Below are positions 19,574 to 64,000 of a stretch of DNA of 64,000 nucleotides, piece by piece. The position numbers and the translations under genes are program-made. The notes beneath the pieces were generated by a model. It was not told where the DNA came from, did not search any database, and saw only the letters and a program-made list of their open reading frames with translations. Numbering within the stretch: position 1 is the stretch's first letter; the number at the start of each line of letters is the position of its first letter. This stretch comes from Isoetes taiwanensis (Eukaryota > Streptophyta > Lycopodiopsida > Isoetales > Isoetaceae). The stretch is taken from the NCBI GenBank assembly GCA_021234155.1, contig JAJEKV010000054.1, positions 5,567,962 through 5,631,961 on the forward strand. Reading direction: 5' to 3'.

Positions 19574-19841
19574 TTACACTGGGATCGCTTGCAAGGCATA
19601 GTAATTCTCAACAGAATGGAGGAAGCAGGGGATCCCAGATAACACTGGAGTTAGATGCTTCCTGAAAATCTTGGCAAGCGATAGCGAACCTGTGAACATC
19701 CCTAATGCTCGTCTTATAAAAAACCATTGCCAAGCAATCCAGAGACAGATCAAGAAAGCCAGGGACAGAACTATGTGGTCCATAACAAATGCAATTTACA
19801 TATATGATACAATATACTCTATATAGCAATCTAAAAAACAA
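19574..19841 (-). pseudogene. F-box (PP2-B-like) gene fragment, copy 1
   Basis: The minus frame contains LSLDCLAMVFYKTSIRDV, then FAIACQDFQEASNSSVIWDPLLP. This is the F-box of phloem-protein-2-B-like F-box proteins (usual pattern LPEDCLA..LS.TSP.DA......V...F..AA.SD.VWE.FLP). Only this N-terminal exon is present and no PP2 lectin-like domain follows. A closely related copy lies at 32074-32277. Both are followed by the same AT-rich repeat, so the F-box piece appears to be part of a duplicated unit rather than a working gene. Confidence 0.6.
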
Positions 19842-20607
19842 AAATAATAGTGCAACAAAAAGCAGTACTGAAAGTTGGACAAATGTTTATAAAGCATCTT
19901 TATCAACAATTTTATAAATAGCTATACTGCAAAAGATTTGAGAAGTGGCAAATTCAAAATTTTTTTTTTTTTCTTTTTTTATAAAGAGTAAACTATAAAT
20001 GCTAATTCTATTAATTAGAGGTTGTATATCAGAAAAAATTTGTTAAAAAGATATATAGATAATGGTATATATATGTAAATAAATTTGTGGGCAATTTTTT
20101 AAATTAAAAAGAAGGAAGAAAATTACTAGCTGCGCGTTAAACATCTTCGATTTCAGCATGGATTAAATTTGAATGTTGTGGTACCATTCTTGAGGCTTCG
20201 GGCTATTCAACAAATGCCAATTTTGTTTTAAGCATGGAGAGAAATGGCTAAGTAAGAAAGTGCCATTCAAATAGAAATGGAGAAACTTAATAGAATTATA
20301 TTGTTTATTTATTTGTAATTTCTGTATCACGACTTTATATGAGTCAAGAATTCCACAATACAAATATATTATGTGCTATTATAAAAGTTAGTTTATATAA
20401 TATAAAGTTTAGTTTATCACACGGACAAATTGGTTATAATACAAACCTAAAACTAAAAAAACCATTGAATACTCTCAATATTTCAGTCCTCAAAAGATAA
20501 TATTTAAAAATATGAACTTTTGTTTGATAGAATGACCTTAAAAATTTAACAATTAGTACTTTTTAAATGTTTGGCAAATGACATTTTATAATAACAAATA
20601 TGATTAG
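19842..20607. repeat. AT-rich repeat unit downstream of F-box fragment, copy 1
   Basis: Markers such as 'tacatatatgatacaatata', 'aaagcatctttatcaacaat', 'gtatatcagaaaaaattt' and 'agtttatcacacggacaaattgg' recur in the copies at 21075-21830, 24570-24916 and 32285-32521. No coding content. It was interrupted by the LINE at 20608-21074. Confidence 0.7.
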
Positions 20608-21074: not shown

Positions 21075-21830
21075 AATACATGACTAATTTATAAAGCTAA
21101 ATTTTCACAATTATAATTTACATAAATGATATGATATATACTCTATATCAGGGATAGGTTCAATACTCCGTATGTTTTATATACAATATGTATTATTCGT
21201 ATGATACGGCACAAATTTGTTATATAATATGTAAGAAATACGGCAAAAAACAAGGCATCGGAAGATTTTTACGTATGCGAAAAGAAGTAAAGCGCGTACT
21301 CAAAAGTTTTTCGCGACACTGAAAAACCTGTACACAAAAAGGCAAATTATATTGTTCCGCGTACGCGATAGTTGTTTCGTCAAAACAAAAATGGCAGGGC
21401 AATAAAAACTAGTACTGAAAGTTTGACAAATCTTTATAAAATATCTTTATCAACAATTTTATGAATAGCTATATTGCACAAGATTTGGCATTGGGCAATT
21501 CAAAAATAATTTTTTTATGATGATAAAGAGTAAACTATAAATATTAATATTAATTCTATTAATTAGAAGTTGTATATCAGAAAAAATTTGTTAAAAAGAT
21601 ATATTGATATTGTTATATGTAGTTAAATAAATTTTAGATAATTTTTTAAATTGATAAAGAAAAAAAGCAATAAAACTACTAGCTAAATTTTCAAATTTTT
21701 TATAATTATATTATTTATTTATTTTTTATTTTTTTATCATGAGTTTATATTAGTTTAAAAATTCCACAATATATATATTATAAACTATTACAAAAGTAAC
21801 TAAAGTTAACTAAAGTTTTATATAATACAT
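21075..21830. repeat. AT-rich repeat unit, second portion/copy
   Basis: It resumes the repeat interrupted by the LINE. 'tactgaaagtttgacaaat', 'atctttatcaacaatttta' and 'gtatatcagaaaaaatttg' match 19.86-20.1 kb, 24.87-24.91 kb and 32.31-32.5 kb. No gene. Confidence 0.65.
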
Positions 21831-24569: not shown

Positions 24570-24916
24570 AACAGAATTATATATGTGTAGATAAGGTTTA
24601 GTTTGTCACATAGACAAATTGGCTATAATACAAACCTAAAACTCAAACAACCATTGAATATTCTCAATATTTCATTTCTCAAAAAAAATTAAAACTACGA
24701 ACTTTCATTTGATAGAATGACCTTAAAAATTTAACAATTAATATTTTCCATATGTTTGATAAATGACATTTTATACATAATAAATATATGACTAATTTAT
24801 AGAACTAAAGATTTCACAAATGTAATTTACATAAATGATACAAAAAAAGCAAAAATGCCAACAAAAAGCAGGTATAGGAAGTTTGATAAATCTTTAAAAG
24901 CATCTTTATTAACAAT
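24570..24916. repeat. AT-rich repeat, third copy, cut by YR element 1
   Basis: It matches 20.38-20.6 and 21.08-21.46 kb ('gtttgataaatgacatttta', 'atgactaatttata', 'aaagcatctttattaacaat'). It stops exactly where the left repeat of the tyrosine-recombinase element begins (24917). The last bases before the element are 'aacaat'. Confidence 0.7.
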
Positions 24917-25052
24917 CCCATCGATCCGAGCCATCGGATCGCCATTCTGGGAAAGGACGAGCCCCTATATTAGGCTAGTTCCATTCTCAGGCCGGTTATC
25001 GGCGTCTTCTCACAGCAGCATTTTCTTCTTTCTCGTAGCTTCCCTCCCTTCC
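24917..25052 (+). repeat. YR element 1 left repeat A1
   Basis: 136 bp, starting cccatcgatccgagccatcg. Reading by eye I find no difference from A2 at 31001-31136. The first ~43 bases contain the palindrome CGATCCGA/TCGGATCG and the right half of a larger inverted repeat (ATTCTGGGAAAGGAC), whose left half is supplied by B. Confidence 0.85.
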
Positions 25053-25486
25053 TTTACACTTCATGCAACCCTTTTGCTGATTCAGTCTCTTTTCTTGACA
25101 ATGGTTTCTTGCCTAGCTTTTACATGCTTTCGTTTTCATCACAGATACAATCTCATCTTCACGACAATGCTTTTCTTGCTAGCTTTTACATGCTTTTGTC
25201 ACGGATGCAATCTCATCTTCATGGTAGCATCAGATTGGGACCCGTATGATTTCTATGATTCTTAGAAAGGCATCCCGAGGGAATCGTTTACCGGGGCATC
25301 GGGACGCGATTACAGGAGCATTGGTGGCCTCTGTGATTGGTTTTGGATTCATATTTTTTATCTGTTCTTCTATTTCGATTCTTGTTTTATTACATGCATG
25401 CCTTCTTATCTTGCCAGATTTCGATTTTAGATTCGATGCATGCCTTCTTATGTTGCCAGATTTCGATTTCGATTCCTGCTTTCCGA
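25053..25486. repeat. YR element 1 body, left part with short tandem duplications
   Basis: Contains a duplicated ~65-bp unit ('cttgcctagcttttacatgctt' near 25107 and 'cttgctagcttttacatgcttt' near 25175, each followed by 'gcaatctcatcttcatgg'-like text). A second duplication of 'gcatgccttcttat.ttgccagatttcgattt' lies at 25397-25470. No intact gene. Confidence 0.55.
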
Positions 25487-25680
25487 GATCGGCGCACAGG
25501 CATGGGGTATGACAGAAACAACTGCTGTAGGTTCGGGCTGCAGCCCAGATGCACCTTTTGGTTCTGCAGGCGAATTGATGCCAACTCTTGAAGCCCAGGT
25601 AATCGACACAGCAATCGGACAGCTATTGCCGGTACATAACGTAGGCGAGCTTTTATTGCGGGGTCCAGTTGTCATGCAAG
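25487..25680 (+). pseudogene. Captured 4-coumarate:CoA-ligase-like (AMP-binding) exon
   Basis: The plus frame reads GAQAWGMTETTAVGSG, then FGSAGELMPTLEAQVID, LLPVHNVGELLLRG and PVVMQG. These are the A5-A8 core motifs of the ANL adenylate-forming superfamily, in the form typical of plant 4CL and 4CL-like enzymes (GYGMTETTG; FGSAG.L.P..EAKIVD; GELW.RGP..M.GY). The exon ends at a plausible donor (g|gttggt, 25681). No neighbouring 4CL exons are seen, so this is a single captured exon inside the YR element. In the source gene the enzyme would activate hydroxycinnamates or related acids as CoA thioesters; here it cannot be functional. Confidence 0.75.
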
Positions 25681-28190
25681 GTTGGTTCCTTTCTCTCATT
25701 TTCTTTTACGTTACAAGAAGATGCAAGCGAAAAGCAGGTGCAATAGTTTTTGTTTGCCATTGGTGGACTTCTTCTTGCATGCAATACTACAGACGATTCT
25801 TGTTGGCGTGAATCCAATGCCTATGTTATCCAATTCTTTCCCGGTCAGCCTTCTGCACTGTCTTCATACCCGTTCTCACCTTGTTTCTGTTTAGATTTCG
25901 GTTTTGCTCCTTAGATTCGGCATTTTCTGCTCAATCTACATATCGATCTCCACTTTGCTATCTACCTTATAGCCTTTTCATCCTATCTCATTTGCCCATT
26001 CTATCCTCTTCGAAACTGTTCCAGTCCCCTTGGTCCCCGATTTTCTTGTTTCACTTACCTGGGTTTTGCTCCAGCGGTCTGCTCCGGCTTGTTCTGACGT
26101 TTCTCACAGGCATTGGGCATTGTGGGACTTCACTTCCTGCCTTACACTGTTGTTGGAGTTAGATTCATTCACTAGTCTCTTGTTGAATTGGGATCGCGCA
26201 CCACATTCTGCATGTAGAGCAATGAGTCAGGAAGGTCACATCCAGTGTTTGGGGTTGTGTCCATGCTTAGAAGACACATTGTACATCGGGTCAATTCATT
26301 CCCGATTACATAAATTTGTGCTGTTCCATCATTCAGGGAGTGCAGCTGCCACCATGGTTTCTGCGACTTTTTCTGGTAAGCCATTATTCTTATTTGATTG
26401 AGGGTTTTTCAGGATAGCTATGTCCATCACCGAATCTACAGATTTTTTTCTTCTCCTTTGTCGTATTTGTCATTTTCTGGTTTGCTTTGTGCTTTTTTGT
26501 GGTTTAATTTCCTTGAGGGCTCTGCTCATGCATAGATGGAGGTTTCGATTATGGGTATGGGTTTTCTCTGTTTTGCTCTTGATACATGCAGTTGGCTATG
26601 GAGCAGCACAAATCTTGGGCATCGGCGGAATCGAATTTTTCCATAGAAGATGGCAGATTATACGATTGGTTTTGCAGCACAAGCCTCTTCTTCTCGCCCA
26701 TTGTCCTGCCTTACAGCTGGAAATCTGCGCAGTCAAGAACCGAATCTGGAGTGGATGTGGTCGCTGGAGCGTTCGACGGAGTGCTGATGCTGAATCGTTG
26801 CTGGTCCGCCCGTGTTGTAAGTAGATCGATTGTGGGTAAACAGATGGCAGCTTTTTCCTACTATCTTTTTCCTGCCTTCACTCCCTAAGCCGATCTGCCT
26901 GGCCGGTTTCAATTCCGCCCAGCTCGACCAATCTCTTTTGTCTTGCCATAGTCTGTAGATGGCTCGGCCTTTTCTCTACAGCCCTGTTTCTTCGCTAGGT
27001 TTGCTTTTTTCTTTCTCCAGATCGTTATGCAGAAGTAGCTCCTTGGGCAGGCCGTTGGCTGCCTTATTTGAAGATGCCGGTTCAAACCCTGGGTATGCCC
27101 GCATTATCATTTTAATGTTACATTCTAGGTTTGCCCTTTGTTGTTATACACCCACTTAATTTCAACTTCCATCTACTTCCTAGGTTCGTGTTAACCACCA
27201 CGTTTTTCTTTTCAAAATCGACTCTTTTCCGTTAATTATGCCTTTACACTTGTAAGTTGCCACGTCACTTTTGTTCTTATACACGTTCACCACTTAATTT
27301 CAACTTCCACCTACTTCCTAGGTTATTGTCAACCCCCACATTTTTATTTTCACAATCGACTCTTTTCAGTTATTATGGCTTTACACCTTTATCGTGTGTT
27401 AGTTCCCTTGTAAGTTGCTACACGTCACTTCTCCAGCCTCCTTTGCCATCCCAATCTCCGGCCTGTACCTTCTCCATGTCCGTGATCGGGCTCGCTTGTC
27501 CTTTCTCCTTTTTTTGTTACTCTGGCCTTTTTGTGGTCTTTTGCTCTTTGGAGCACATCTTTATTTTTATGTTTCCTTTTTCTCGTACCTAGCTTATGTT
27601 GCCTTTTTGCCAACTTCACCACGCGACAGCATTTGGGATTTGCCAATGTTAAATTTCTAATCTTGTGGTGCTCTTTTATTCTCTTCGGTTCATTCTCATT
27701 TGTGCTTTTGAGGTTGAACACATTACTACGCAACAATTAAGGTAACTTCTCTTGGCAGGTTTCTAGCTTGGCACATACGGATAGCCCTTGGGATTTTCAT
27801 TGTGCAAATGTGGTTTTCGCATGTTTCCTATTTGCTGCATTTGCTCCCATGTGCCTTTCATTCCGTACTCCTTAGCGCAATATTTTGGGGTCATTTGTTA
27901 AGATTCATCTTGTTACATAATCAATTTGTCTAGACATGTTTCTTTCCCGTTGGTTTGGAATTTCTTAGGATAATGGGAGAGCTTTGGCCTTTTGAACTTA
28001 TGGGTGCATTTGCATGGGTTTCACTTGATAATTAATGCGTTTTTTCATGAGGTGTATTTTTGCACGTGTATATTGCTTTTTGAATATGGGGCGATTCTGG
28101 TCCTTATGGCATATTATTAAACATCTATTCGGAACCTTCTGTCAACTTTCGCGTATTGTTAGTTAAAAGTTTTACTTCTCACCTATGCCT
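25681..28190. other. YR element 1 pyrimidine-rich body
   Basis: The plus strand is strongly enriched in T and C. Exon-like islands at about 26150-26375 and 26590-26820 have more balanced composition and end before GTAAG, but I do not recognise the products. A ~155-bp tandem duplication ('cacttaatttcaacttccacctacttcctaggtt') lies at about 27150-27400. Long frames in this body follow from its composition, since stop codons are purine-rich. Confidence 0.5.
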
Positions 28191-28932
28191 CGTTGTTTTC
28201 GGATTTTTCTTCTTTGCACTTGTGTTTTTATCATGGATTCGATGCACCATACTATTTAAATGGGTCTATGCTCTCCTCGCGCCGTTTTTCTCTTGTTTAT
28301 GTTCTAGCTCACTTTTTACCTCGGTTTTGTCTTGTGGTCGTTTCCTTGGGATGTTGTCTTGTTTTCATACTTCTACGCTGCAGTCTCTTGGTTTATTATC
28401 TTTTTATTGCCTATGGATTTGTGGCCATCATCTTCCGGGTTGCATTTGTCTTTTTTATATTGATGCATTCCATTTCCATGGTAGGTTGCAGTATGGCCTC
28501 AATTGCGTGTTATTTCTCCGACATGTATCTCTTTTGTATGTTATTGTGGTTCCCATGTGATTATATGTGGCATTCTTTTCTGTGTTTAGGATTTCCCCAT
28601 GGTGGTTTGGGTTTTATCTTTTGCACTTGTGTTTGTATCTTATGTGTGATGCACTATACTTGGCTCAGGTGGTATACGTTATTCGGGTGGTATTATCTTC
28701 TACATTCTAGGTTTCCCATAGTTGTTGTGGTTTATCTTGTTTTTTCTTCCACCCGCTGGGTGATGTTTTTCTCCACCCCCTGGGTGATGCTGTCCTCTCT
28801 TTTTTCCGGAATCGTTTCTAATCGCTCACCTCCTTTTGAGTGCTTGTCGTTTTGCAGTTTGCCGCTTCGCCATTATGCACGTTCTTGTTCTCCTTAATTG
28901 CTCGTGGGTGCATTCTACATGTTCCATTTCTT
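28191..28932. repeat. Body blocks a and b shared with YR element 2
   Basis: 28195-28325 (block a) matches about 61055-61185. 28347-28725 (block b) matches about 57810-58203. The blocks are adjacent here but separated by ~2.8 kb and in the opposite order in element 2. Similarity is high and collinear within each block. Confidence 0.75.
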
Positions 28933-29105
28933 CTCGCGCTTAGTCGTTGGCGCTCCTCTTCGTCTCACCCTCGCTACGTGCTTCATGCTCGACTCGACCC
29001 CTGGAGTTTTTCGTGGTAGTTTGTGCAGTTCGCCTCATTTTATTGTTACGCTCCATTCGCTACGTGCTTCGTGACCCAACTCAACGCTTGGAGGTTTCGC
29101 GGCGA

Positions 29106-29115
<10 letters not shown>
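28933..29115 (+). pseudogene. Two decayed copies of the recombinase C-terminus
   Basis: One frame reads SRWRSSSSHPRYVL (about 28935-28990). Shortly after, RSIRYVLRDPTQRLEVSRRL appears (about 29050-29105). Both copy the end of the tyrosine recombinase (GRWRSSSSHSRYVLRDPTQ at 62.1 kb), including the catalytic Tyr context. They lack the upstream catalytic domain. The second runs into a (CT)n tract at 29106-29148. Confidence 0.65.
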
Positions 29116-29140
<25 letters not shown>

Positions 29141-29690
29141 CCCCTCTCCTCTTGTCGTTCTTCTGTTCCATTCAAGTATTTTGTTCTTCTGTTCCATTCA
29201 AGTATTTTGTGACATGTTTTCCACCTCTTTCTCCTTTGTGGCTAAATTTCTTATATGTATATTCTATATTTGGTTTGGTCCGATACTGGGTTTTGAATAT
29301 TTAGGGGTTGCGTTTCAGATTTTTCTTCTTTTTTGGCATGATCATCGGGGAGCTCTAGTGTTTGTTGGTTCCTTTGTTCACTTTATTAGCGCACTTATTT
29401 GTTGCTTCATGAAGTTATATTTTCTATCCTTGAACATGGGTGACGGGTGCTTTTGTTCAGTGTACCAATTTTATGGATTTGGGAGCTTCTTTGTTTTTGT
29501 TAGCTCCACTTTGTCATGTTCGCAGTAGACTGATTTTTCGTGCGTACTTTTGCTCCCTATATATGATATTACATACTCATTGTGTAAGTTTCGAGACGTT
29601 GCTTTATTAGACATGGTTGACTTTTCATGTTCTTTTAGCCCCTAGTTTTTATCATTCTTCCCCGTTTCCTCCGTTTTTTGCTCGATATGC
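29116..29690. repeat. Body block c shared with YR element 2
   Basis: About 29150-29690 matches 59430-59945 ('ttcttatatgtatattctatatttggtttggtc', 'gcacttatttgttgcttcatgaagt', 'gacgttgctttattagac'). It includes a duplicated 'ttctgttccattcaagtatttt' at 29158-29210. No gene. Confidence 0.7.
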
Positions 29691-29806
29691 AGGGTCCATA
29701 TGTTGAGGTTCGTACTCACACTTGCTGGCGGTCCTCGTCCTCTCGCGCTCGCTACGTGGTGTGCGACTCTACTCAACTTCTCCATGTTTCTCGTTCGATC
29801 TTTATG
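29691..29806 (+). pseudogene. Third decayed recombinase C-terminus, after a possible splice acceptor
   Basis: After 'gatatgcag' the text reads VEVRTHTCWRSSSSRARYVV, closely parallel to the RTHGRWRSSSSHSRYVL of the better copies. The corresponding place in element 2 (about 59952-59995) carries the same start (RTHG-like) and then breaks off. It is isolated from the catalytic domain. Confidence 0.6.
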
Positions 29807-30154
29807 TCTATGCATTTTTGCATTCCTATGCGTAAGTTTTTCCTCTTTGCCTTATTATCTCGGTTACTTGTTATTCTTTCTTCTTAATTATCGTTATTGT
29901 TTATTCTTTTGGGGATCCATGATGAGGGCTTCCTTTGTTGACTTATCTCCCTCTAGATCTTGGCCACAGGTTCGGAAGGGATAATAGCCACATTCTTGGA
30001 CTTCGGTCCGTAGCTCCATTCACGGACTTCGGTCCGGCATTTGTATTCAAATCAGTCAACTATGCCGGGCCCTTCCTTCGATTCTTCATCGTGGCGGCGT
30101 CCTTTTCTTTTCATTGTTTTTGTTCTCTAATGTTCCTCCCTTTTTCAGGTCATT

Positions 30155-30554
30155 GAGCTGATGCCGTCCATAGCAGGCGTTTTCGGCTCTTCTTCTTCAA
30201 CTTCGCTTTTCTCTCCACGGCTCGCTCGCGCTGCTGGTTCTCGTCGTCAACGCGAAGCTTCCCTCGCGCTTGAACCAGACTCTTCGGACCCTGGTTCCCT
30301 TTCTCCCCCTGCCACTCCAAACGAGACCCACTGCCCGCGCTCATATGATTTCTTTAGCTCGCTTGCCTTCGTTCGCATGCCTGGCCCGTCACTATCCTTC
30401 AGCGCCTCCAGCGGCCCTCTTTTTCGCTCCTCTCCTTCCTCTACGTCCTTTATCCTATCCGATTGCTTGGGTGGTGGTGGCGCTCCTTTTCTTCTCCCCC
30501 CGCTATGTGCTTTGCGACCCAACTCCACACCTGGCGGTTCTCGCTGTCTATTGA
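30155..30554 (+). pseudogene. Recombinase-like segment with internal deletion
   Basis: A GC-richer, coding-like stretch begins after 'tttttcaggtcattgag' with MPSIAGVFGSSSSTS. From about 30330 a second frame reads HMISLARLPSFAC, matching HTISLARLPSFAC downstream of the catalytic Lys region in element 2. It then jumps to FSPRYVLCDPTPHL (about 30500-30540), so the part carrying His and Arg-II is deleted. It is non-functional. The 30155-30330 piece has no match in element 2 that I could see. Confidence 0.6.
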
Positions 30555-30694
30555 GGGTTTTTGCACTTGTAGCGGCTCTTTTTCTATTTGGTATGCTCAT
30601 TACATATCTTTGGCATATTTGCTATTTGGCTTTATCTAGATAGGATGCATATTGCGTTTGGCACTGCGTTGAGATTTTCCGACGTGGGTTTATA

Positions 30695-30940
30695 TTGGAT
30701 TATCTTTCATTTTTATGCTTCTCTTTATTTAGATATGGGGTGTCCTACGTTGTTGTCCACAAGGTATTGTATTGGGCACATTCGGCTCGTCGCGGAGGAG
30801 CTTCAGCGGCTGCCGCTCGGGGAGTTCCACATGATGCTGCACGCACTCACGGTCGTTGGTGCTCCTCTTCTTCTCACTCTCGCTATGTGCTTCGCGACCC
30901 AACTCAACACTTGGGGGTTTCGCGGCGCCTGGGTTTATAG
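30695..30940 (+). CDS. Tyrosine recombinase C-terminal catalytic segment (element 1)
   Basis: 81-residue open frame. HSARRGGASAAAARGVP (His at 30779-30781, Arg-II two codons later) is followed by HGRWCSSSSHSRYVLRDPTQ, with the candidate nucleophile Tyr at 30884-30886, then a stop at 30938-30940. This is the H-x-x-R ... GRW ... Y signature of phage-integrase-like recombinases in the style of DIRS/Ngaro/Crypton YRs. The N-terminal core-binding domain and Arg-I are absent here (they survive in element 2), so this copy is truncated. The stop lies 22 bp before B1, as expected if the YR is the last gene of the element. Confidence 0.8.
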   Translation: MDYLSFLCFSLFRYGVSYVVVHKVLYWAHSARRGGASAAAARGVPHDAARTHGRWCSSSSHSRYVLRDPTQHLGVSRRLGL

Positions 30941-30962
30941 TTAAGGAAGTCCTTTGGTAGTC

Positions 30963-31043
30963 GGCCGGTTTTGTGTCTCTCGCGAGTCCTTTCCCAGAAT
31001 CCCATCGATCCGAGCCATCGGATCGCCATTCTGGGAAAGGACG
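30963..31043. promoter_or_regulatory. B1-A2 junction palindrome, candidate recombinase site
   Basis: B1 ends GTCCTTTCCCAGAAT and A2 contributes ATTCTGGGAAAGGAC, giving 15-bp perfect arms. These enclose a second perfect palindrome, CGATCCGA-gcca-TCGGATCG. Near-identical nested palindromes occur at 62.22 and 63.13 kb and, diverged, at 50.33-50.38 kb. YR target sites typically have inverted recombinase-binding arms around a short core; assigning that role here is inference. Confidence 0.6.
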
Positions 31044-31136
31044 AGCCCCTATATTAGGCTAGTTCCATTCTCAGGCCGGTTATCGGCGTCTTCTCACAGC
31101 AGCATTTTCTTCTTTCTCGTAGCTTCCCTCCCTTCC
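31001..31136 (+). repeat. YR element 1 internal repeat A2
   Basis: Same 136 bp as A1 at 24917; after it the two copies diverge at once. Directly abuts B1. Confidence 0.85.
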
Positions 31137-31199
31137 CGCCCTGCTGCGTGGGCGTGTACGTCTTTTTCATTTGTATTAGTATTGGTTCTTGCCCTCTTT

Positions 31200-31530
31200 G
31201 TTGTTTTTCACCTGTGGGCGTCGCTTTTTCCTTGTTGCTGTTTCCTTGGCATTTTTCTGTGTTTTTCTCCGCCTGCGGGTGATGCTGTTTATTTCCACCT
31301 TGAGGGCCTCTTTTTCATTTATATATTTTTTATTTATGCACTTTTTGTGTTCTCCACCTGTGGGTGTGGCTTTTCCCATGTTGTTGTTTCCTTGGCCTTC
31401 TACTGCGTTATTCTCCACCTGCGGGTGATGCTATTTATTTCCACCTTGAGGGTGCGGCGTATTTTGATATAATGATTTTCCACCCGCTGGGTGATGCTTT
31501 TTCCACCCTATGGGTGATGCTATTTTTTCC
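31200..31530. promoter_or_regulatory. Cluster of short CCACC..GGGTGATGC hairpin motifs
   Basis: The unit CCACCtgcGGGTGatgc (or CCACCcgctGGGTGatgc) recurs around 31205, 31268, 31346, 31412, 31480 and 31502. Each unit is itself a small inverted repeat. The same cluster sits in the same A2-B2 interval of element 2 (62440-62605), near 28742-28785 and 58930-58975, and in the short minus-strand derivative (50085-50137). Retention in the derivative argues for a role in mobility, for example protein binding; this is inference. Confidence 0.55.
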
Positions 31531-31816
31531 TGTTATGTTCTTTTTCTACCTATTTTGATTTCTCGTCTCTTCGGTCCTTTGTTGATCCAGCTTCTTTTTA
31601 TGGCTATGCCTGTTTTGTTTTTCTAACCGTTTACGGGTGTTTTTTTTTTGGGAGTTCTTTGGTGTTGCAGGTTTTCTTGTATTCCGTCAGTTGCTGGGGT
31701 CCTGTTGCGTTTCTGTTCGTCCCCCTCTTCGTTACCTTCGGGGTTTTTCGCCATTGTCTACGCCTTCGCGTTCGTCCGTTCTATCTCTGTTCTCCAGGCA
31801 ACACATTCGAGGTTGG

Positions 31817-31895
31817 TGGCGACCATTTCTCATTAGGGTTTTCCTCGAAAACCCGAAAGGGCGGGGTTTTTTATCCCGATGAGAAGTTGTCGCCA
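31817..31895 (+). ncRNA. Conserved multi-stem structure near the right end of YR element 1
   Basis: Outer stem TGGCGAC/GTCGCCA, inner closing stem TTCTCAT/ATGAGAA, then two hairpins inside: GGGTTTT-cctcg-AAAACCC and CGGG-loop-CCCG. Together they form a three-way junction in RNA or single-stranded DNA. The same structure is at 62901-62979 and, with a compensated stem (GCTTATC/GATAAGC), at 49885-49965 on the minus strand. I label it ncRNA only because no better type exists; it may act as a cis element of the transposon RNA or DNA. Confidence 0.55.
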
Positions 31896-32024
31896 TTGCC
31901 CTTCTATATTGCCTTAGCATATTTTCTTATGGGGTAGTCCGATATTGTTCCTATGGTCGGCTACCCCTCTCTCTTCCAAACATTGTATACTGCTGCTGTG
32001 ATGAATGACAAGCCTATCTATCTA

Positions 32025-32062
32025 GGCCGGTTTTGTGTCTCTCGCGAGTCCTTTCCCAGAAT
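32025..32062 (+). repeat. YR element 1 right repeat B2
   Basis: 38 bp from ggccggttttgtgtc to tttcccagaat, identical by eye to B1 at 30963-31000. The element ends here; host repeat sequence with the F-box fragment begins shortly after. Confidence 0.85.
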
Positions 32063-32073
32063 TTTTTGAACAA

Positions 32074-32277
32074 TTACGGATCCCAGATAACATTGGAGTT
32101 AGTTGCTTCCCCAAAATCTTGGCAAACGAGAGCGAACCTGGCAACATCCCTAATGCTTGTCTTATCAAAAATCATTGCCAAGCAATCCAGAGACAAATCA
32201 AGAAAGCCAAGGATAGAACTGTGTGGTCTACAACAAATACAATTTACATATATGATACAATATACTCTATATATCAA
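32074..32277 (-). pseudogene. F-box (PP2-B-like) gene fragment, copy 2
   Basis: The minus frame has LSLDCLAMIFDKTSIRDV, then FALVCQDFGEATNSNVIWDP. It is slightly closer to the F-box consensus than the copy at 19574-19841. It ends at the YR element 1 boundary, so the rest of the gene is absent. It is followed by the AT-rich repeat (32285-32521), the same pairing as in copy 1. Confidence 0.6.
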
Positions 32278-35439: not shown

Positions 35440-35877
35440 ATGAAGTTTGTCACTGTCAAACTACTTACAGATGAATCGCAACACAATGGAACCATCCATC
35501 CTATATCTCGAGTAGACTTCTTTCACCAACCAGATAACCGACCTTGGACAATTCATAGACGTCAACTCCCACTGCGCCCAGCCTATTCAACAACATTCAA
35601 CAGTTGTTTAGGACTAACACTCGACAAAGTTCTTGACCTAAGAACAGAAGTGTTTGCACACGGACAACTATACACAGCTCTCACACGTGTTCGAAGAAAA
35701 GAAGACGTGTTAATCCTCCTAGACGCCAGCAACATAGCACAAACTACAAGAAATGTCGTTTACAAGGAACTTCTACTCTTAACCCTCAAAAAAAAAAAGA
35801 AAAAAAAAACCTTTATCATTTGTCTTGGACAGCCAAACCAGACAATTACCCTTCATACAGCCTTTGCAAGGAAGTAA
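35440..35877 (+). pseudogene. Pif1-like helicase C-terminus (Helitron remnant)
   Basis: The frame reads RVDFFHQPDNRPWTIHRRQLPLRPAYSTTFN, broken here only for length, then CLGLTLDKV, FAHGQLYTALTRV and RRKEDVLIL. These correspond to the last SF1B motifs of Helitron/Pif1 helicases (RRQFPLR.AFAMT.NKSQGQTL; VFAHGQLYVALSRV). The usual KSQGQTL is degenerate (NSCLGLTL), and the upstream Walker A and B region is missing, so it is a dead tail. After about 35790 the frame runs into a lysine-coding A-run and is not helicase. Confidence 0.8.
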
Positions 35878-37097: not shown

Positions 37098-39026
37098 TCA
37101 TTCTTTACTCATGTCAGCATAAGCATGCAAATTTGACATCTGTACATAGCCACCAGCATAGTAAGAATCTAGGCGAGCTATTTCTTCAAAGCATTTTCTG
37201 GCTAGCTCTAGATTCCCATACATTGTGCAAGCATTAAGCAGGGATCTCCACCCCGACTCATTGGGTTTTATAGAGATACGGGCCAAACATTCTGCTTCCT
37301 TAAAGCATCCTGATCCTCCTAAAAGATCAATCATACAATTATAATGTAAGGTATCAGGTTGGATGCCAAAGGACTTTATCATATATTCAAAATACCAATG
37401 ACCTTCATCAGCCAAACCTGCACGACTACAACAGGCAAGTATGCCATTAAACGTCAGGCCATCCAATTTGATGCCACTCCATTCCATGTCCATAAGACAT
37501 TGGATAGCACATGAAGCCTTGCTATGATGTGCATATCCTGCAATCATTGCATTCCATGACACAACACTTTGGTTTGCCATATTCCCAAAGATTATCAGGG
37601 CCTCATCCAAGCCCCCACATTTGACGTACATGTCAATGAGACTGCTGGCTAGAACAACATCTGATATGATCCCATATACAAGGATCTGGTGATGAATCAA
37701 CTTGCCTTCTCTTATGGCTCCAGTGTTTGCACATGCTTTCAACATGCTCAAAAATATAACTTTATTGGGCACTATGCCTTCCAGTTGCATTAGTCCATAA
37801 CATGAAAGAGCAAGATGACCTTTTTCATGCGAAGCAAATGCTGTCATCATTGCACCCCATGTTACAGCATTCCGATTCGACAATTTATCAAAAATCTTAG
37901 ATGCCTCCACCATGCTTCCACATCTGGCATACATATCAACAACACTACTACCTACAACAATATCTGATTGAAATCCACTTTCAACAACTTGATTCCAAAT
38001 GAGCCTGCCCTGCTCAATGGCTCCAATGCTGCCACAAGCTTTTAAAATACTTGAAAACGTAAATTCATTAGGCCGTATGCTTTCATGATACATTCTATTA
38101 AAGCATTCAAGAGCTAGCATGCCTTTCCCATGGTGTGCATAACATGCAACCATTGCATTCCATGCCACCAGATTTCTACTTGATAATTTATCAAAGGCCG
38201 TGAGTGCCTCTTCCACACTTCCACATTTGGCATACATATCAACAATTGCATTTCCCACAACATGAGATTTGAAACATCTTTGGATGATCTGCTCATGTAT
38301 GAACCTACCCTTGTGTATGGCTTCAATGGTCCCACACGCCTTCAAGATACTTGAATACGTAAATTCATCTGGCTTCCTACCCTCTGTATGCATAATTTCA
38401 AAACATTCAAGAGCAAGGAAACCTTTTCCACTTTCAGTATATCCAACTATCATTGTGTTCCAAGCAATTACATCTCGATGAGGCATGTGGTAGAACACAT
38501 TGTGGGTCTCTTCTATGTTGCCACATTTAGAATACATGCGCATTAAAGCAGTGCTTACAACAAGGTCTGTTTGTAGTCCAAATTCTATAATTTCCAAATG
38601 GATAATCCTTGCATGCCTGAGGGATGTTGTTGCACTGCAGGCTTTCAAGACTGTAATATAAGTGTACTTTATTCCTTTAATACCTGATACTTGCATCCTG
38701 TTATATAGGTGGAAAAATGTTTCATCTTTGCCAAACGAAGCATGAGCCGAAATTATTGAATTCCAAGCATCCAAACTTGGCCATGAAATTTTCTCAAAGG
38801 CCTGATGTGACTCGACCAGGATCCCACATACGGCAAACATGCAAATCAGGTAGCTACCAGAAAGAGCATTACAGACAACACCAGAGTGCATTAAAAGACT
38901 CTGTATCATTCTTCCATAATTAAGATCTTTGCTTGTAATGCATTCTTGTAATAGGACGCACATATAAGATTCGGACATAGTATCTTTACCCTTGATAATA
39001 GCAACAGCTTCATTTCGTCGACCCAT
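37098..39026 (-). CDS. PLS-type pentatricopeptide repeat protein, intronless, C-terminus truncated
   Basis: About 642 residues from the Met at 39026. It consists of tandem PPR motifs of ~35 residues arranged as P/L/S triplets, with repeated signatures such as DMYAKCGSVEEA, NLVAWNAMVACYAHHGKG, RPNEFTFSSILKACGSIGAI and DALHYN/DTLHYNCMIDLLG. PPR proteins bind organellar RNA one base per repeat, and PLS proteins usually act in C-to-U editing or processing in chloroplasts or mitochondria. The frame ends at MSNLHAYADMSKE, where an E domain would normally follow; there is no E, E+ or DYW domain. At the 5' side an in-frame TGA lies just upstream of the WDDLKKLCKMG text, while a second frame at 39046-39303 looks like the natural N-terminus. 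It is either a truncated but working binder or a recent pseudogene. Confidence 0.8.
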   Translation of the reverse strand: MGRRNEAVAIIKGKDTMSESYMCVLLQECITSKDLNYGRMIQSLLMHSGVVCNALSGSYLICMFAVCGILVESHQAFEKISWPSLDAWNSIISAHASFGKDETFFHLYNRMQVSGIKGIKYTYITVLKACSATTSLRHARIIHLEIIEFGLQTDLVVSTALMRMYSKCGNIEETHNVFYHMPHRDVIAWNTMIVGYTESGKGFLALECFEIMHTEGRKPDEFTYSSILKACGTIEAIHKGRFIHEQIIQRCFKSHVVGNAIVDMYAKCGSVEEALTAFDKLSSRNLVAWNAMVACYAHHGKGMLALECFNRMYHESIRPNEFTFSSILKACGSIGAIEQGRLIWNQVVESGFQSDIVVGSSVVDMYARCGSMVEASKIFDKLSNRNAVTWGAMMTAFASHEKGHLALSCYGLMQLEGIVPNKVIFLSMLKACANTGAIREGKLIHHQILVYGIISDVVLASSLIDMYVKCGGLDEALIIFGNMANQSVVSWNAMIAGYAHHSKASCAIQCLMDMEWSGIKLDGLTFNGILACCSRAGLADEGHWYFEYMIKSFGIQPDTLHYNCMIDLLGGSGCFKEAECLARISIKPNESGWRSLLNACTMYGNLELARKCFEEIARLDSYYAGGYVQMSNLHAYADMSKE

Positions 39027-39045
39027 TTTACATAATTTTTTCAAA

Positions 39046-49658: not shown

Positions 49659-49689
49659 TTTTGAATGTAATAACTATTGGATGCTCAAT
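49659..49689. repeat. Left copy of 31-bp flanking duplication
   Basis: The text from 'ttttgaatgtaataac' to 'ggatgctcaat' matches 50710-50740 with one mismatch. It directly abuts the end of the short YR-element derivative. Reads as a target-site duplication of unusual length. Confidence 0.8.
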
Positions 49690-50181
49690 TCTAGAATAGG
49701 ACTCGCAAGAAACCAACAAACCGCCATAGATAGGCTTCTCATTCATCTCAGCAGATTTTCTGCAATGGTGGACAGTGGGTAGCCGCACACATGCGAACTA
49801 CCCACGAAAAATAAAGGGAAAATCCAATTATATCATTTGGACCCCAAAACAAATACAATGCTAATAGATGAGTGGCTGATGTACCTGCCGAAAGCTTATC
49901 TTAGGGATTAAAAACCCCGCCTCGCTCGGGTTTTCGAGGAAAACCCTAGTGATAAGCCTTCGAGCAAGGGGCTTAGACAAACGAAGGCATAGAATCGCCC
50001 CAAAACCCCGCATGGAGAAGTCGAAACGGATGCCGCCGCCAACCTGCACCGCACATCACCAACACAACAAACGAGAAACATACCAGAGAATAGCATCACC
50101 CGGTGGAAAAGCATCACCCAAATGGGTGGAAAAAACATGATAAACGTAACTTAATAAACAAAGAAGGGGGGGAGGGTGGGT

Positions 50182-50357
50182 TCAAAGAGAATAAGGTACT
50201 GCTGAGAGAAGAGGAAGCGCCGATGAGACGTGGATGCAGAAACGCGCCTGAAATAGCGAACTCCCAACCAAAAACAGGCATGCGCCGCCCACATGCATGC
50301 ATGACATGCATGCTCGTCCCATTCTAGAATGGCGATCCGATGTCTCGGATCGATGCG
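50182..50357 (-). repeat. A2 of the short YR derivative
   Basis: ~176 bp, differing from A1 (50532-50708) at only two or three positions. It includes the alternating 'catgcatgcatgacatgcatg' region and the start palindrome CGATCCGA/TCGGATCG with loop variant gaca. Confidence 0.8.
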
Positions 50358-50531
50358 ATTCTAGATAGGACTCGCAAGAAACCAATAAACCGCCCGACTA
50401 CCAGAGAACTTCCTTACAAACTAGGATCGAGGACGAAGGTCACAGGACGAGGCCAAAGGCCGTAAAGGAAGAAAGATACGCCAAATTGGCTAAACCAGGC
50501 AGGAAGAAGCCCCTCCCCCGCCTGGAAACAA

Positions 50532-50708
50532 TTCAAAGAGAATAAGGTACTGCTGAGAGAAGAGGAAGCGCCGATGAGACGTGGATGCAGAAACGCGCCT
50601 GAAATAGCGAACTCCCAACCAAAAACGGGCATGCGCCGCCCGCATGCATGCATGACATGCATGCTCGTCCCATTCTAGAATGGCGATCCGATGTCTCGGA
50701 TCGATGCG
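50532..50708 (-). repeat. A1 of the short YR derivative
   Basis: Left terminal repeat on the minus strand; ends at 50708 against the right-hand copy of the 31-bp duplication. Confidence 0.8.
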
Positions 50709-50709
50709 A

Positions 50710-50740
50710 TTTTTAATGTAATAACTATTGGATGCTCAAT
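50710..50740. repeat. Right copy of 31-bp flanking duplication
   Basis: Matches 49659-49689 with one mismatch (T for G). Beyond it the host sequence continues as LINE linker/RT. Confidence 0.8.
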
Positions 50741-55035: not shown

Positions 55036-55691
55036 ATTTTAACCAAAAATTGAAGTGAAGTTTACAACTGAAATAGTAGCATTTTTAAAATTGAAGATAA
55101 AATCTTCATATTCACGTTCAAAATTTACTTCTTTTTTTCTAAGACTCAGTTATGTGCAAAAGTGTGAGGAGTGATAAGAGAGGGATCCAAGACATCTTCA
55201 TGCTCGTTTATGCCATCTTCGTCAGTTTCACTTCTTTCACTGTCACTTTGGGAAGTGCTTGAGTTATCTTCCTCGTCATTATCAATAGAGGGTGAAGCAT
55301 TCCCAACCTCTTCTTCATCTTCTTCTTCATAGTTACAAGCCTTCTTAAGCAAGTTGATTGTTCTCTGGCGTAAACGATTGTCTAATTTCAATTTGAAATC
55401 ATAGCACATAATACTCACTTGTCGTAAGTCTAGCTCAACCTGTTTTGGCTCTTCATAAAAATTGCATTGTGTTTCGAACACGGCAGGCCAACATTGAAAG
55501 AAAGATGGTCCTCTAGTTTCCCTCTTTAAGGTTCCCCTAGATTCCTCAAAATTTCTTTAGATTTCATTCAAATTCTTTTAAACTTTATGAGATTTGATTC
55601 CCTTTAGATTATCTAGGTTTCCCTCGAGACTCCCTAAGAATCCCCAAATTTCTTTGACCTTTCCTCAAAGTTCCTCGATATTTCATAAAAT
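55036..55691 (-). CDS. Unrecognised acidic ORF (55146-55481) and flanks
   Basis: The frame 55146-55481 encodes 111 residues: DLRQVSIMCYDFKLKLDNRL, a basic helix INLLKKACNY, then a long acidic Ser-rich run and NEHEDVLDPSLI. No domain is recognised. It may relate to the region upstream of the ParB-like gene at 51.9-52.2 kb. From 55482 to 55691 lie short 'ttccct.aga.t' degenerate repeats, ending in 'tttcataaaat' where YR element 2 begins. Confidence 0.3.
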
Positions 55692-55818
55692 CCCATCGAT
55701 CCGAGCCATCGGATCGCCATTCTGGGAAAGGACGAGCCCCTATATTAGGCTCGTTCCATTCTCAGGCCGGTTATCGGCGTCTTCTCACAGCAGCATTTTC
55801 TTCTTTCTCGTAGCTTCC
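55692..55818 (+). repeat. YR element 2 left repeat A1
   Basis: Matches element 1 A over 127 bp with one difference seen (ggctcgttcc for ggctagttcc), then diverges at 'atggttg'. Confidence 0.85.
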
Positions 55819-61190: not shown

Positions 61191-61244
61191 ATCTTTGTGA
61201 GCGTCAATTTGAATGAAATTAAACATGGTTTTTTATGTTGTTGT

Positions 61245-62175
61245 GACAGCTACTTCTCGCTTGCTCACCTCCCAGGAGGTTCTCTTTTTCTTTGCGACTT
61301 TGCCTTTAGTTTTTTCCTCCCGTGCCCCATCTACTCTTTTGTCTTACTTCGCTATGTTCCGCCGCTTTGTTGCTTGGTGCCGTCTACATGCTGTTCCTTA
61401 TCTTCCAGCTTCTCCTTTTGTTGTTGCGGCCTTTTTTGCCTCTCTTCATCATCCTCAGATGTCGGCCTCATCCATTTCTTCGGCCTCGGAAGCCATATCC
61501 TTTTTTCATCAACTTTTCAACCTTCCCTCTCCCGCCATTTTACCTTTACCCTCGTTGGCTCATCAGTCTACCTTTCGTCACGCTCGCCCTCCTCGTACCT
61601 TTCTTCCTCTCACCGCCTCGGCATGTATTTTCGATTGTTCTCCACTTTGCGCATCCCTGCGGCTTCTTTTCCCTCTACGGCCCGGCGCCCATCGTTTATA
61701 GTTTCCTTTGCCGCTTTTTTGCGCATCTCGGAGGCCCTTGCCCTCAATTGGCGGGATCTTTCTTTTTCCTTATCGCATGTGGATCTTCTTATTCGTCATT
61801 CCAAGTGTGACCAGCTTGCCCGCGGTCATACGATTTCTTTAGCTCGCTTGCCTTCGTTCGCATGCCCTGTCACTATCCTTGGTGCTTGATTTCTACCGGT
61901 TCTTATCATCTCCTCGATCCTCCATCCGGCGGCCCTCTTTTCCGTTCCTCTCCTTCTTCTTTGCGTCCTTTATCCTATCTGACTGCTCGGGAGTGGTGGC
62001 GGGAGTACTCATTTGGCTTTCGTCAGCGGAGGGCTTTGGTAATTTTGCCTTTCGGGGAGTTCCACATGATGCTGCGCGCACTCACGGTCGTTGGCGCTCC
62101 TCTTCTTCTCACTCTCGCTATGTGCTTCGCGACCCAACTCAACACCTGGAGGTTTCGCGGCGCCTGGGTTTATAG
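61245..62175 (+). pseudogene. Tyrosine recombinase, near full-length but frame-broken (element 2)
   Basis: After a possible splice acceptor (gtgacag) the frame opens with TSRLLTSQEVLFFF, then APSTLLSYFAMFRRFVAWC and PFVVAAFFASLHH, a SAM-like core-binding domain. In another frame, from about 61690, comes FAAFLRISEALALNWRDLSF with Arg-I (near 61722), then LLIRHSKCDQLARGHTISL with the beta-hairpin Lys (near 61803), then CPVTIL. In further frames come RPLSYLTAREWWR and finally RTHGRWRSSSSHSRYVLRDP with the nucleophile Tyr near 62119, and a stop at 62173-62175. The His/Arg-II box (HSARRGG in element 1) is deleted. At least two frameshifts make it inactive. It resembles DIRS/Ngaro/Crypton-type recombinases. 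Confidence 0.82.
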
Positions 62176-62197: not shown

Positions 62198-62285
62198 GGC
62201 CGGTTTTGTGTCTCTCGCGAGTCCTTTCCCGAGAATCCCATCGATCCAGAAGCCATCGGATCGCCATTCAGGGAAAGGGCGAGCC
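62198..62285. promoter_or_regulatory. B1-A2 junction palindrome of element 2 (eroded)
   Basis: Same nested palindrome as at 30963-31043 but worn: CCCGAGAAT for CCCAGAAT, two inserted bases in the inner loop, and CAGGGAAAGGGC in the right arm. Confidence 0.55.
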
Positions 62286-62369
62286 CTATTAGGCTCGTTC
62301 CATTCGGGGGCGGTTATCGGCGTCTTCTCCTGGCGGCATTTTCTTCTTTTCGTAGCTTCCCTCCCTTCC
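62237..62369 (+). repeat. YR element 2 internal repeat A2
   Basis: A-type repeat with several substitutions and small deletions relative to A1 at 55692. Confidence 0.75.
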
Positions 62370-62605: not shown

Positions 62606-62900
62606 ATCTTTTTTTGTTATGCTCTTTTTCTGTCTATTTTTATGCCTTATATCTTAGGCTTTCTTGATCTGAGATTCTTTTTATGGCTAGGCTTGTTTCT
62701 CTAACTCTTACGGGTGTTTTTGAGTTTTTGGTATTGCAGGATTTCGCTATCTTCCGCCAGCTGTTGGGGTCCTGCTGGTTTTCCGTTCGTCATCCTCGTT
62801 GTTACATGGGGTTTTTTCGCTGTTGTTTGGGGTCGTGCTTTGTGTTTGCCTTCGCTCTCGTCCGGTTTCTCTGTTCTCTAGGCAACACATTCGAGGTTGG

Positions 62901-62979
62901 TGGCGACCATTTCTCATTAGGGTTTTCCTCGAAAACCCGAAAGGGCGGGGTTTTTTATCCCGGTGAGAACTTGTCGCCA
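62901..62979 (+). ncRNA. Conserved multi-stem structure near right end of YR element 2
   Basis: Same fold as 31817-31895: TGGCGAC/GTCGCCA, TTCTCAT/GTGAGAA (one wobble pair), GGGTTTT/AAAACCC, CGGG/CCCG. Confidence 0.55.
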
Positions 62980-63104
62980 TTGCCCTCCTATAATGCCTTA
63001 GCACATTTTCTTTTTTGGGGTAGTCCGATGTTGTTCCTATGGTCGGCTACCCCTCTCTCTTCTTACACATTGTATATTGCTGCTGTGATGAATGACAAGC
63101 CTAC

Positions 63105-63142
63105 GGCCGGTTTTGTGTCTCTCGCGAGTCCTTTCCCAGAAT
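63105..63142 (+). repeat. YR element 2 right repeat B2
   Basis: 38 bp, same as B1 and B2 of element 1 by eye. Confidence 0.85.
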
Positions 63143-63276
63143 CCCATCGATCCGAGCCATCGGATCGCCATTCTGGGAAGGGACGAGCGCCTATATTAGG
63201 CCATTTCTGTTTTGGCTCGGTTATCGGCGTCTTCTCACAACAGCTCTTCTTATCCTCTCGTAGCTTCCCTCCCTTC
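63143..63276 (+). repeat. Third A-type repeat (A3) after element 2
   Basis: Begins cccatcgatccgagcc directly after B2 and runs to 'cttccctcccttcc' with diverged middle ('ggccatttctgttttggctcgg'). It is the start of another element whose body is lost, or a trace of tandem head-to-tail insertion. Confidence 0.7.
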
Positions 63277-64000
63277 CCGCCCTGTTCACGGTGGCGCATG
63301 CATCAAGGTTCTCATTAGTTCTTATTGGATTCCTGAAGGTGTGTCAAAACACGGGCATATTCATTCCAATGTTCTTGATGAGCAGCTTTCAATGGTGGCA
63401 ATTCTCAATTCTGACACGGCACACAAGTTATGGGCATTTCAAATCAATTAGTGCATTAAATGCATCTTATTACTCGTATTTTTTAAGTGAACATCTATAG
63501 ATGTCACACATGGTGGCTAATGATATTAATACCTTGTAGCGATGATTCTAGCGGTGGAATTTTGCAGAGATATCACAACTTGTCGCCACATTAACTAGGT
63601 AGTCAAAATGATTGTGTCTGCCTTTTAAAGGCATTTGAATGAATTTTTTGCTAGACGATTTCTCCTACGATACTCAAGCATCTCAGTTTGTTCCAATTTA
63701 AGGTAACTCAAAATGGGATACCGCATAAGAACAGTTATTAGCAAAGAAAAAATGAACTAAAGTGCTTCGGTAATGAACCAAGCGTAAAGATCGGTGAAAA
63801 CCATGTAGTAAGCATGTAATTGCGCAGTTGGCCACCCAATGTTTGTTGCACCCAATGCAATGGTTGGGGGCTACTCCCATGCATTACATTCACAACCAAT
63901 CATAAACATTCACACATAGTTTGTCATATGCCATGGAATCAAAGAATATAACAATCCTTCCTCCCACACAGAAAGCCAACACAGATTTTCTTTTCCTTAA
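63277..64000. other. No gene recognised
   Basis: AT-rich sequence after the A3 repeat. Short open frames only. Confidence 0.4.

What the first reader, a model, noticed from the sequence alone, without database searches (positions are those of the whole stretch)
24917..32062. Tyrosine-recombinase element with split direct repeats in a plant genome
The sequence shows A1 (136 bp)-body-B1 (38 bp) A2 (136 bp)-tail-B2 (38 bp), with A and B copies identical by eye, and a reading frame ending 22 bp before B1 that carries HSARRGGASAAA, GRW and RYVL. Known: A1-...-B1A2-B2 is the layout of PAT/Ngaro-like YR retrotransposons, and YR retroelements are well described in green algae and animals. I know of no well described family with this structure in ferns or seed plants. 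A second long copy (55.7-63.1 kb) and a short one (49.7-50.7 kb) repeat the plan, so this is a family and not a coincidence.
Basis: partly seen in the sequence, partly recalled or inferred. Interest (0 to 1): 0.9.

Follow-up and report, generated by a model that had tools for sequence, protein, structure and literature searches.

The report
Plant transposon with split direct repeats
Three related mobile elements in what looks like a land-plant genome share an unusual split-repeat layout, and two of them carry remains of a Cre-like tyrosine recombinase, a kind of mobile element that a 2022 review leaves out for land plants.

Summary
E1 (24914-32062) is A1(139 bp)-body-B1(38 bp)A2-tail-B2, both repeat pairs 100% identical. 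E2 (55689-63142) and short minus-strand E3 (49690-50714) share the plan, and separate motifs before B1 and before B2 are conserved in 3 of 3.
A profile of ten outside tyrosine recombinases (YRs) hits E2 (E 6.5e-12, 2.5e-7) and E1 (1.4e-11); the reversed window's best is 2.2. That family matches Cre (2.6e-26). No copy has an intact YR, and 158 ORFs of E1 and E2 show no reverse transcriptase. Best reading: non-autonomous members of a PAT/Ngaro-like retroelement, moved in trans by an unseen relative.
Extra features: complementary outer ends, with three compensatory changes in E3; a structured stem in the tail; an adenine-poor YR-sense strand; an acyl-CoA-ligase exon in E1.
Against: E3 has a flush 26-bp flanking repeat, which YR integration should not make; E2's internal junction is decayed.
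A PPR neighbour points to a land-plant host. A 2022 review keeps DIRS elements out of land plants, though automatic annotations print small counts. Filing as PAT or Ngaro is withheld for lack of reverse transcriptase.

The parts
24914..25052 (+). E1 repeat A1 (139 bp)
   Evidence: 100% identical to 30998-31136
25431..25808 (+). E1: captured host exon, acyl-CoA ligase superfamily (4CL/luciferase-like); homology stops at ...GPVVMQGW, at a GT
   Evidence: PF00501 E 5.8e-13; luciferase chains E 3.3e-8, query residues 17-85
26596..26815 (+). E1: exon-like stretch between ...TGCAG and GTAAGT, identity unknown
   Evidence: splice-like edges read by eye; no significant Pfam match
28943..30544 (+). E1 body: four partial copies of the YR C-terminal coding end (28943-29010, 29057-29107, 29695-29793, 30478-30544)
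   Evidence: matches to 62061-62165; repeat family D10
30644..30940 (+). E1: C-terminal part of tyrosine recombinase with HxxR, HGRW and RYV boxes and stop codon
   Evidence: YR profile E 1.4e-11
30963..31000 (+). E1 repeat B1 (38 bp)
   Evidence: 100% identical to 32025-32062
30986..31042 (+). E1 B1A2 junction: 15-bp outer stem around an 8-bp inner hairpin
   Evidence: fold z -5.5 and -6.4 in two shuffle sets for 30974-31040
30998..31136 (+). E1 repeat A2 (139 bp)
31161..31526 (+). E1 tail: 146-bp tandem pair and repeated CCACC-N-GGGTGATGCT units
31815..31897 (+). E1 tail: long structured stem with invariant core TAGGGTTTTCCTCGAAAACCCGA
   Evidence: fold z -5.4 for 31815-31896; 3 compensatory pairs against E3; core in 3 of 3 elements and nowhere else in the window
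32025..32062 (+). E1 repeat B2 (38 bp), right end
55689..55818 (+). E2 repeat A1
   Evidence: 99.2% to E1 A1
61213..61698 (+). E2: YR N-terminal SAM-like core-binding domain
   Evidence: YR profile E 6.5e-12; PF13495 E 0.0018, below the Pfam cut-off
61695..61874 (+). E2: YR stretch with LRISEAL (catalytic Arg) and SKCDQ (Lys), another frame
   Evidence: profile E 2.5e-7, residues 193-252 of frame 61119-61886
61843..62172 (+). E2: YR C-terminus (HGRW, RYVL), third frame, stop follows
   Evidence: weak profile hit E 0.083; 97% DNA identity of 62046-62230 to E1 30811-30995
62198..62236 (+). E2 repeat B1
   Evidence: 97.4% to E1 B
62234..62369 (+). E2 repeat A2 (87% to E1 A, small indels)
62899..62981 (+). 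E2 tail structured stem
63104..63142 (+). E2 repeat B2
63140..63277 (+). third A copy directly after E2's B2, then truncated
   Evidence: 88.7% to E1 A1
49690..50714 (-). E3, short copy on the minus strand: A1 50532-50711, B1 50358-50394, A2 50181-50360, B2 49688-49725 (B2 and the flanking repeat share two bases)
   Evidence: A copies 98.9% identical over 180 bp, B copies 94.7%
49888..49965 (-). E3 tail structured stem
49664..49689 (.). 26-bp direct repeat, left flank of E3
   Evidence: identical to 50715-50740, flush with E3
50715..50740 (.). 26-bp direct repeat, right flank of E3

Best explanation
E1, E2 and E3 are non-autonomous or decayed members of one family of tyrosine-recombinase elements with split direct repeats, working like PAT/Ngaro retroelements. 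Shown here: the plan A1-body-B1A2-tail-B2 in three copies; remains of a Cre-like recombinase ending 22 bp before B1 in E1 and E2; outer ends that are complementary to each other. Inferred: an RNA that spans the element lacks complete ends; the internal B1A2 junction is the template from which both ends are rebuilt, which is why A1=A2 and B1=B2 within a fresh copy; a circular intermediate is closed at B|A; a recombinase supplied in trans by a relative outside the window recombines the 'AAT' at the B|A junction with an AAT in the target. The base-paired ends and the tail stem are probably the cis signals that let RT-less copies such as E1 and E3 be copied. The E1 body also holds a host acyl-CoA-ligase exon, perhaps picked up from a pre-mRNA by template switching.
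For: Exact A and B pairs in E1. E3's two A copies agree 98.9% over 180 bp, although E3 and E1 share only about the first 50 nt of A, so repeats are renewed within a copy. Separate motifs before B1 and before B2 are each conserved in 3 of 3 elements, so body and tail are not chance neighbours. YR profile hits E 6.5e-12, 1.4e-11 and 2.5e-7; reversed-window control best 2.2. tblastn of 12 homologues: best 9.7e-10 in the window, 0.064 in the reversed window. YR family to Cre E 2.6e-26. The R, K, HxxR, H/W and Y positions survive in the pieces of E2 and E1 taken together. An AAT stands at the left and right edge of each of the three elements and once in each internal junction. Outer ends 100% paired with 3 compensatory pairs in E3. 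E1 has no flush target duplication.
Against: No RT, RNase H or gag match in 158 ORFs of E1 and E2. E3 is flanked by a flush 26-bp direct repeat, which conservative YR recombination should not produce. E2's A1 and A2 are 13% different, and its B1A2 junction folds no better than many shuffles (z -1.8, 14 of 300 as low). Counted on the internal junctions instead of the outer ends, covariation is weak: 1 compensatory pair, reached by 135 of 500 shuffles. Only three elements, from one 64-kb window. No autonomous member was seen; its existence is inferred.
Confidence: 0.7

Rival explanations
1. A YR-only DNA element: the family never had a reverse transcriptase. It moves as an excised or replicated DNA circle, Crypton-like, with split repeats kept alike by recombination at the folded B|A junction.
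For: YR is the only mobility gene detected in two 7-kb copies. Complementary ends and a hairpin junction in E1 would suit a recombination site. The listed Pfam domains of P0002-P0013 are integrase domains or none, which says little because they are single proteins.
Against: In the passages seen, the A1-B1A2-B2 layout is described for RT-encoding elements and a short derivative. A DNA element gains nothing obvious from a second A and B. The YR is broken in both copies, so an RT may have been lost too.
Confidence: 0.16
2. LINE-type (target-primed) retroposition in trans of the family's RNA, at least for E3; the split repeats are then relics.
For: 26-bp flush flanking repeat of E3; a LINE RT frame of 571 codons without stops lies at 53326-55038.
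Against: E1 and E2 show no such duplication at the edges tested; E3 keeps closely matching A and B pairs; no poly(A) tail at the right end of E3.
Confidence: 0.09
3. Two independent rolling-circle (Helitron/Helentron) units standing in tandem, each with a conserved 5' end A and 3' end B; complementary subterminal ends resemble Helentron termini (recalled).
For: Complementary ends; captured exon in E1.
Against: No Rep/helicase match in 158 ORFs; YR remains stand 22 bp before B1 in E1 and E2; the same body-tail order in 3 of 3 elements.
Confidence: 0.03

Closest known systems
PAT group of DIRS-order elements (Pat1, Toc3, Kangaroo; nematodes, sea urchin, green algae)
   Same: Split direct repeats A1-B1-A2-B2; tyrosine recombinase (definitions from passages of PMC4157794).
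   Different: No RT/RNase H or methyltransferase matched here; complementary ends, tail stem, adenine-poor strand and captured host exon are extra; host looks like a land plant.
Ngaro
   Same: Internal repeats downstream of the YR, no methyltransferase found (definition).
   Different: No RT/RNase H found; no tree placement possible.
VIPER and its short derivative SIRE (trypanosomatids)
   Same: SDR pattern, repeats 100% identical in some copies; a short non-autonomous derivative exists (passages of PMC6681497).
   Different: SIRE corresponds to the A2-B2 part, whereas E3 keeps the full A-B-A-B plan; unrelated host group.
Klebsormidium nitens Gypsy-Dnmt3 elements (charophyte alga)
   Same: Figure legend says their repeat structure is that of a DIRS retrotransposon (PMC5890265, passage); closest host lineage seen with such repeats.
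   Different: Domain composition is said to be typical of Gypsy, so no YR; carries a DNA methyltransferase.
Crypton
   Same: YR as the only mobility gene seen.
   Different: Cryptons are not known for split direct repeats (recalled).
Cre recombinase
   Same: Profile of the 12 homologues matches Cre over profile positions 9-304 of 320, E 2.6e-26.
   Different: Phage enzyme acting on loxP; here it belongs to a eukaryotic mobile element.

Membership tests
PAT (DIRS order) | split direct repeats A1-B1A2-B2 | tested here: met
PAT (DIRS order) | tyrosine recombinase | tested here: met
   broken but significant in E1 and E2
PAT (DIRS order) | reverse transcriptase + RNase H | tested here: not met
   0 of 158 ORFs of E1 and E2 at E<=0.01; decayed pieces under 48 aa not covered
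PAT (DIRS order) | methyltransferase domain | tested here: not met
PAT (DIRS order) | no target-site duplication | tested here: inconclusive
   E1 none, E2 none at two candidate right edges, E3 26-bp flush repeat
[quoted passage not shown]
Ngaro | reverse transcriptase + RNase H | tested here: not met
Ngaro | position in RT/YR trees | not testable with these tools
   no named reference YR or RT sequences were at hand
Crypton | YR gene as sole mobility gene, no RT in the family | tested here: inconclusive
   no RT in two copies, but both YRs are broken
Helitron/Helentron | Rep/helicase protein | tested here: not met
LTR retrotransposon | DDE integrase / RT / protease | tested here: not met
Penelope-like / retrozyme | hammerhead ribozyme in the repeats; RT | tested here: not met
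   no Rfam match at gathering in the window; at E<=5 only CRISPR-DR65, E 2.2, in 24850-32150; no RT

The most novel reading that the evidence does not exclude
A tyrosine-recombinase mobile element lineage native to vascular plants. Its complementary ends form a folded junction that is itself the recombination substrate (integron attC-like, on single-stranded cDNA or a circle). It has an adenine-poor strand, a conserved structured tail RNA and the capacity to carry host exons, and it is spread by RT-less copies.
Probability: 0.27. Interest if true: 0.87.

Novelty: new variant of a known kind. Interest (0 to 1): 0.7.

Why it matters
[quoted passage not shown] A YR element with a clear split-repeat plan in a land-plant-like genome would fill that gap. 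It suggests either survival of an old algal lineage or horizontal entry, and it offers short, recently moved copies whose repeats and hairpins make the poorly understood replication of such elements testable.

Tried and rejected
Helitron, LTR, Penelope and retrozyme readings were considered and set aside. An empty site for E1 was sought in paralogous flanks: the flanks are old diverged repeats (19630-20082, 20402-20601, 21385-21621) in a different order, so no clean empty site was found. The viral and prokaryote collections held no exact copy of the A core, and the viral collection no confirmed YR locus (5 pattern matches, none confirmed). Sub-threshold Pfam hits judged chance: Ig_NOMO 0.0016 (18.9 bits against a cut-off of 27.5, minus strand), Trypan_PARP 0.0013 in two frames and DUF3796 0.0069. 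The strand skew as a mere sum of host introns was considered; the YR and tail are themselves among the most skewed parts, so it looks like a property of the family. AATAAA is 0 in sense and 15/10 antisense, but this follows from base composition. Against the claim of novelty: papers print 'DIRS' or 'Ngaro' counts in plants from repeat annotation: conifers (PMC6301336, table passage), Ceratopteris 361 copies, 45 kb (PMC6890710, table passage), plant TE atlas (PMC8729191); [quoted passage not shown] None of the passages seen describes an element; no supplements were looked at. The ten literature searches were made; they cover open-licence PMC papers only. One search counted pairs with a wrongly registered bracket string of mine and is void; one search repeats it correctly.
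Full report
OBSERVATION. The repeats are as described. In E1, A1 24914-25052 equals A2 30998-31136 over 139 bp, and B1 30963-31000 equals B2 32025-32062 over 38 bp. The 23-nt A core with up to 3 mismatches is found 6 times (two in E1, two in E3, E2's A1, and a truncated third A just behind E2), with none in 100 shuffles; the 23-nt end of B is found 3 times at that stringency. E3's A is 180 bp and its copies are 98.9% identical to each other, but only about its first 50 nt resemble A of E1. The repeats are therefore kept alike within a copy. E2 is the exception: its A1 is 99.2% identical to E1's A1, while its own A2 is 87%, with small indels.

ONE ELEMENT, NOT TWO NEIGHBOURS. Before B1 stands GTTAAGGAAGTCCTTTGGTAGTC or a close variant, and before B2 stands GATGAATGACAAGCCTA or a variant with one change, 3 of 3 elements each. 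Body end and tail end are therefore distinct conserved parts in a fixed order, although the stretch between A1 and B1 is 5910, 6379 and 137 bp long.

THE RECOMBINASE. Reading the frames by eye gave three broken pieces in E2 and one in E1. A two-row alignment then found 13 proteins at E<=1e-5, P0002-P0014. To test without my joining, I built a profile from ten of these (P0002-P0011; the more distant P0012-P0014 were left out) and scanned the 2092 six-frame fragments of at least 20 aa of the window: E2 61213-61698 E 6.5e-12, E1 30644-30937 E 1.4e-11, E2 61119-61886 E 2.5e-7, next 0.083 (E2's YR C-terminus). The reversed window (2156 fragments) gave nothing better than 2.2. tblastn with the 12 homologues gave 9.7e-10 at best in the window (P0013, E2) and 0.064 at best in the reversed window. 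The homologues were found with the composite, so this is not fully independent, but no window sequence is in the profile. Pfam alone sees only a sub-threshold SAM_4 (E 0.0018) and Phage_integrase (0.075), while P0002 itself passes the Phage_integrase cut-off. The profile of the twelve rows of alignment A2 (P0002-P0013) matches Cre over profile positions 9-304 of 320, E 2.6e-26. The R, K, HxxR, H, W and Y positions are shared by P0002 and the composite. The labels of the boxes are recalled.

WHAT IS MISSING. Of 163 stop-to-stop ORFs of at least 48 aa listed for E1 and E2, I scanned 158; 5 crossing or beyond the outer edges were left out, frames crossing E1's left edge were not in the list, and E3's frames were not scanned. 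At E<=0.01 only AMP-binding (E1), SAM_4 (E2), Ig_NOMO, Trypan_PARP and DUF3796 appear; there is no RT, RNase H, gag, methyltransferase, DDE integrase or Rep/helicase. Divergent or badly decayed RT pieces would be missed. With repeats without a difference (139 and 38 bp) but a broken YR, E1 looks recently moved by enzymes made elsewhere; this is inference.

STRUCTURED ENDS. The last 15 nt of B2 are complementary to nt 31-45 of A1. At the internal B1A2 junction of E1 they close a stem around an 8-bp hairpin (z -5.5, -6.4). E3's B1A2 junction folds less well (z -2.9 and -2.8), E2's is decayed (z -1.8, 14 of 300 shuffles as low), and E2's B2-third-A junction folds well (z -4.7 and -5.5). With outer ends joined (B2 with A1 for E1 and E3, B2 with the third A for E2), the 69 cells pair without exception, with 3 compensatory pairs in E3; shuffles reach the covariation score 18 of 500 times, slid partners reach at most 0.095 against 0.203, but further pair types are not unusual (163 of 500). 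On the four internal junctions 96.3% of cells pair, with 1 compensatory pair, which 135 of 500 shuffles equal. The tail carries a second long stem (z -5.4, -4.3, -4.1) with 95.5% paired cells and 3 compensatory pairs; shuffles reach the covariation score 26 and the number of compensatory pairs 56 of 500 times. The inner pairing predicted for E3 differs from that of E1 and E2. The core TAGGGTTTTCCTCGAAAACCCGA is exact in 3 of 3 elements and absent elsewhere in the window. Three or four sequences are few, so this is moderate evidence. Rfam has no match at gathering.

STRAND COMPOSITION. The YR-sense strand is adenine-poor: AT skew -0.42 in E1, -0.50 in E2 and -0.34 in E3, against +0.01 (sd 0.087, range -0.17 to +0.24) in the 44 1-kb windows free of the elements. 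In E1 it starts and stops within 500 bp of the edges. YR of E2 (-0.54) and the tails (-0.56) are among the most skewed parts, the zone with the captured exon the least (-0.30).

CARGO. E1 25431-25808 holds an acyl-CoA ligase exon (PF00501 E 5.8e-13; luciferase-family chains E 3.3e-8). Homology ends at MQGW at a GT, so it was perhaps taken with intron sequence; E2 shows no counterpart. The bodies are mosaics: shared segments stand in different order in E1 and E2, and E1 holds four extra fragments of the YR end.

INSERTION SITES. AAT stands at both edges of each element and once in each internal junction, as expected if a circle recombines at a 3-bp core. E1 and E2 show no flush duplication at the edges tested. 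E3 has a flush 26-bp one (49664-49689 and 50715-50740); of 2987 random flank pairs two shared 18 bp or more. I cannot reconcile E3 with YR integration unless it landed at the border of a pre-existing tandem repeat.

HOST AND LITERATURE. A 658-codon PPR frame at 37101-39074 has 5454 relatives at E<=1e-30 among 7987 candidates scored; among the 120 listed, those with an organism name are land plants, often Ceratopteris, Adiantum, Diphasiastrum and Cryptomeria, none above 41% identity. Definitions of PAT, Ngaro and SDR were read as passages in PMC4157794, VIPER/SIRE in PMC6681497, and A-coding-B-A-B elements of Symbiodinium and DIRS-like repeats on Gypsy elements of the charophyte Klebsormidium in PMC5890265. 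PMC9033089 leaves DIRS out of land plants. PMC3537659 says complete ALOG-type DIRS elements are not known from streptophytes. Against this, annotations print small DIRS/Ngaro counts for a fern and conifers, and two reviews name DIRS among plant elements. No described land-plant element turned up in the ten searches, which cover open papers only.

VERDICT. A YR element family with split direct repeats in a genome that looks like a land plant's: well supported. Retrotransposon mechanism: likely but unshown. Filing as PAT or Ngaro: withheld, since RT was tested and not found.

Noticed in passing
window 53326-55038 (-): LINE-type reverse transcriptase frame of 571 codons without stops (RVT_1 E 2.9e-32).
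   Followed up: partly
window 37101-39074 (-): PPR protein frame of 658 codons without stops, used to judge the host.
   Followed up: yes
window 35440-35874 (+): Frame resembling the C-terminal helicase part of a Helitron protein (label recalled; no Pfam match at E<=0.01).
   Followed up: no
window 11276-11653 (-): Frame resembling a copia-type RNase H remnant (label recalled; no Pfam match at E<=0.01).
   Followed up: no
window 42601-44155: About 530-bp unit in three tandem copies, partly up to 99% alike.
   Followed up: no
window 63140-63277: Third A repeat directly behind E2's B2, then truncated; could be an older element used as integration target at its own left end.
   Followed up: partly
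window 49664-49689 and 50715-50740: 26-bp flush direct repeat around E3, not expected for tyrosine-recombinase integration.
   Followed up: partly
window 12345-12807: Inverted repeat with 120-nt arms, 98% complementary, 223 nt apart, MITE-like.
   Followed up: no
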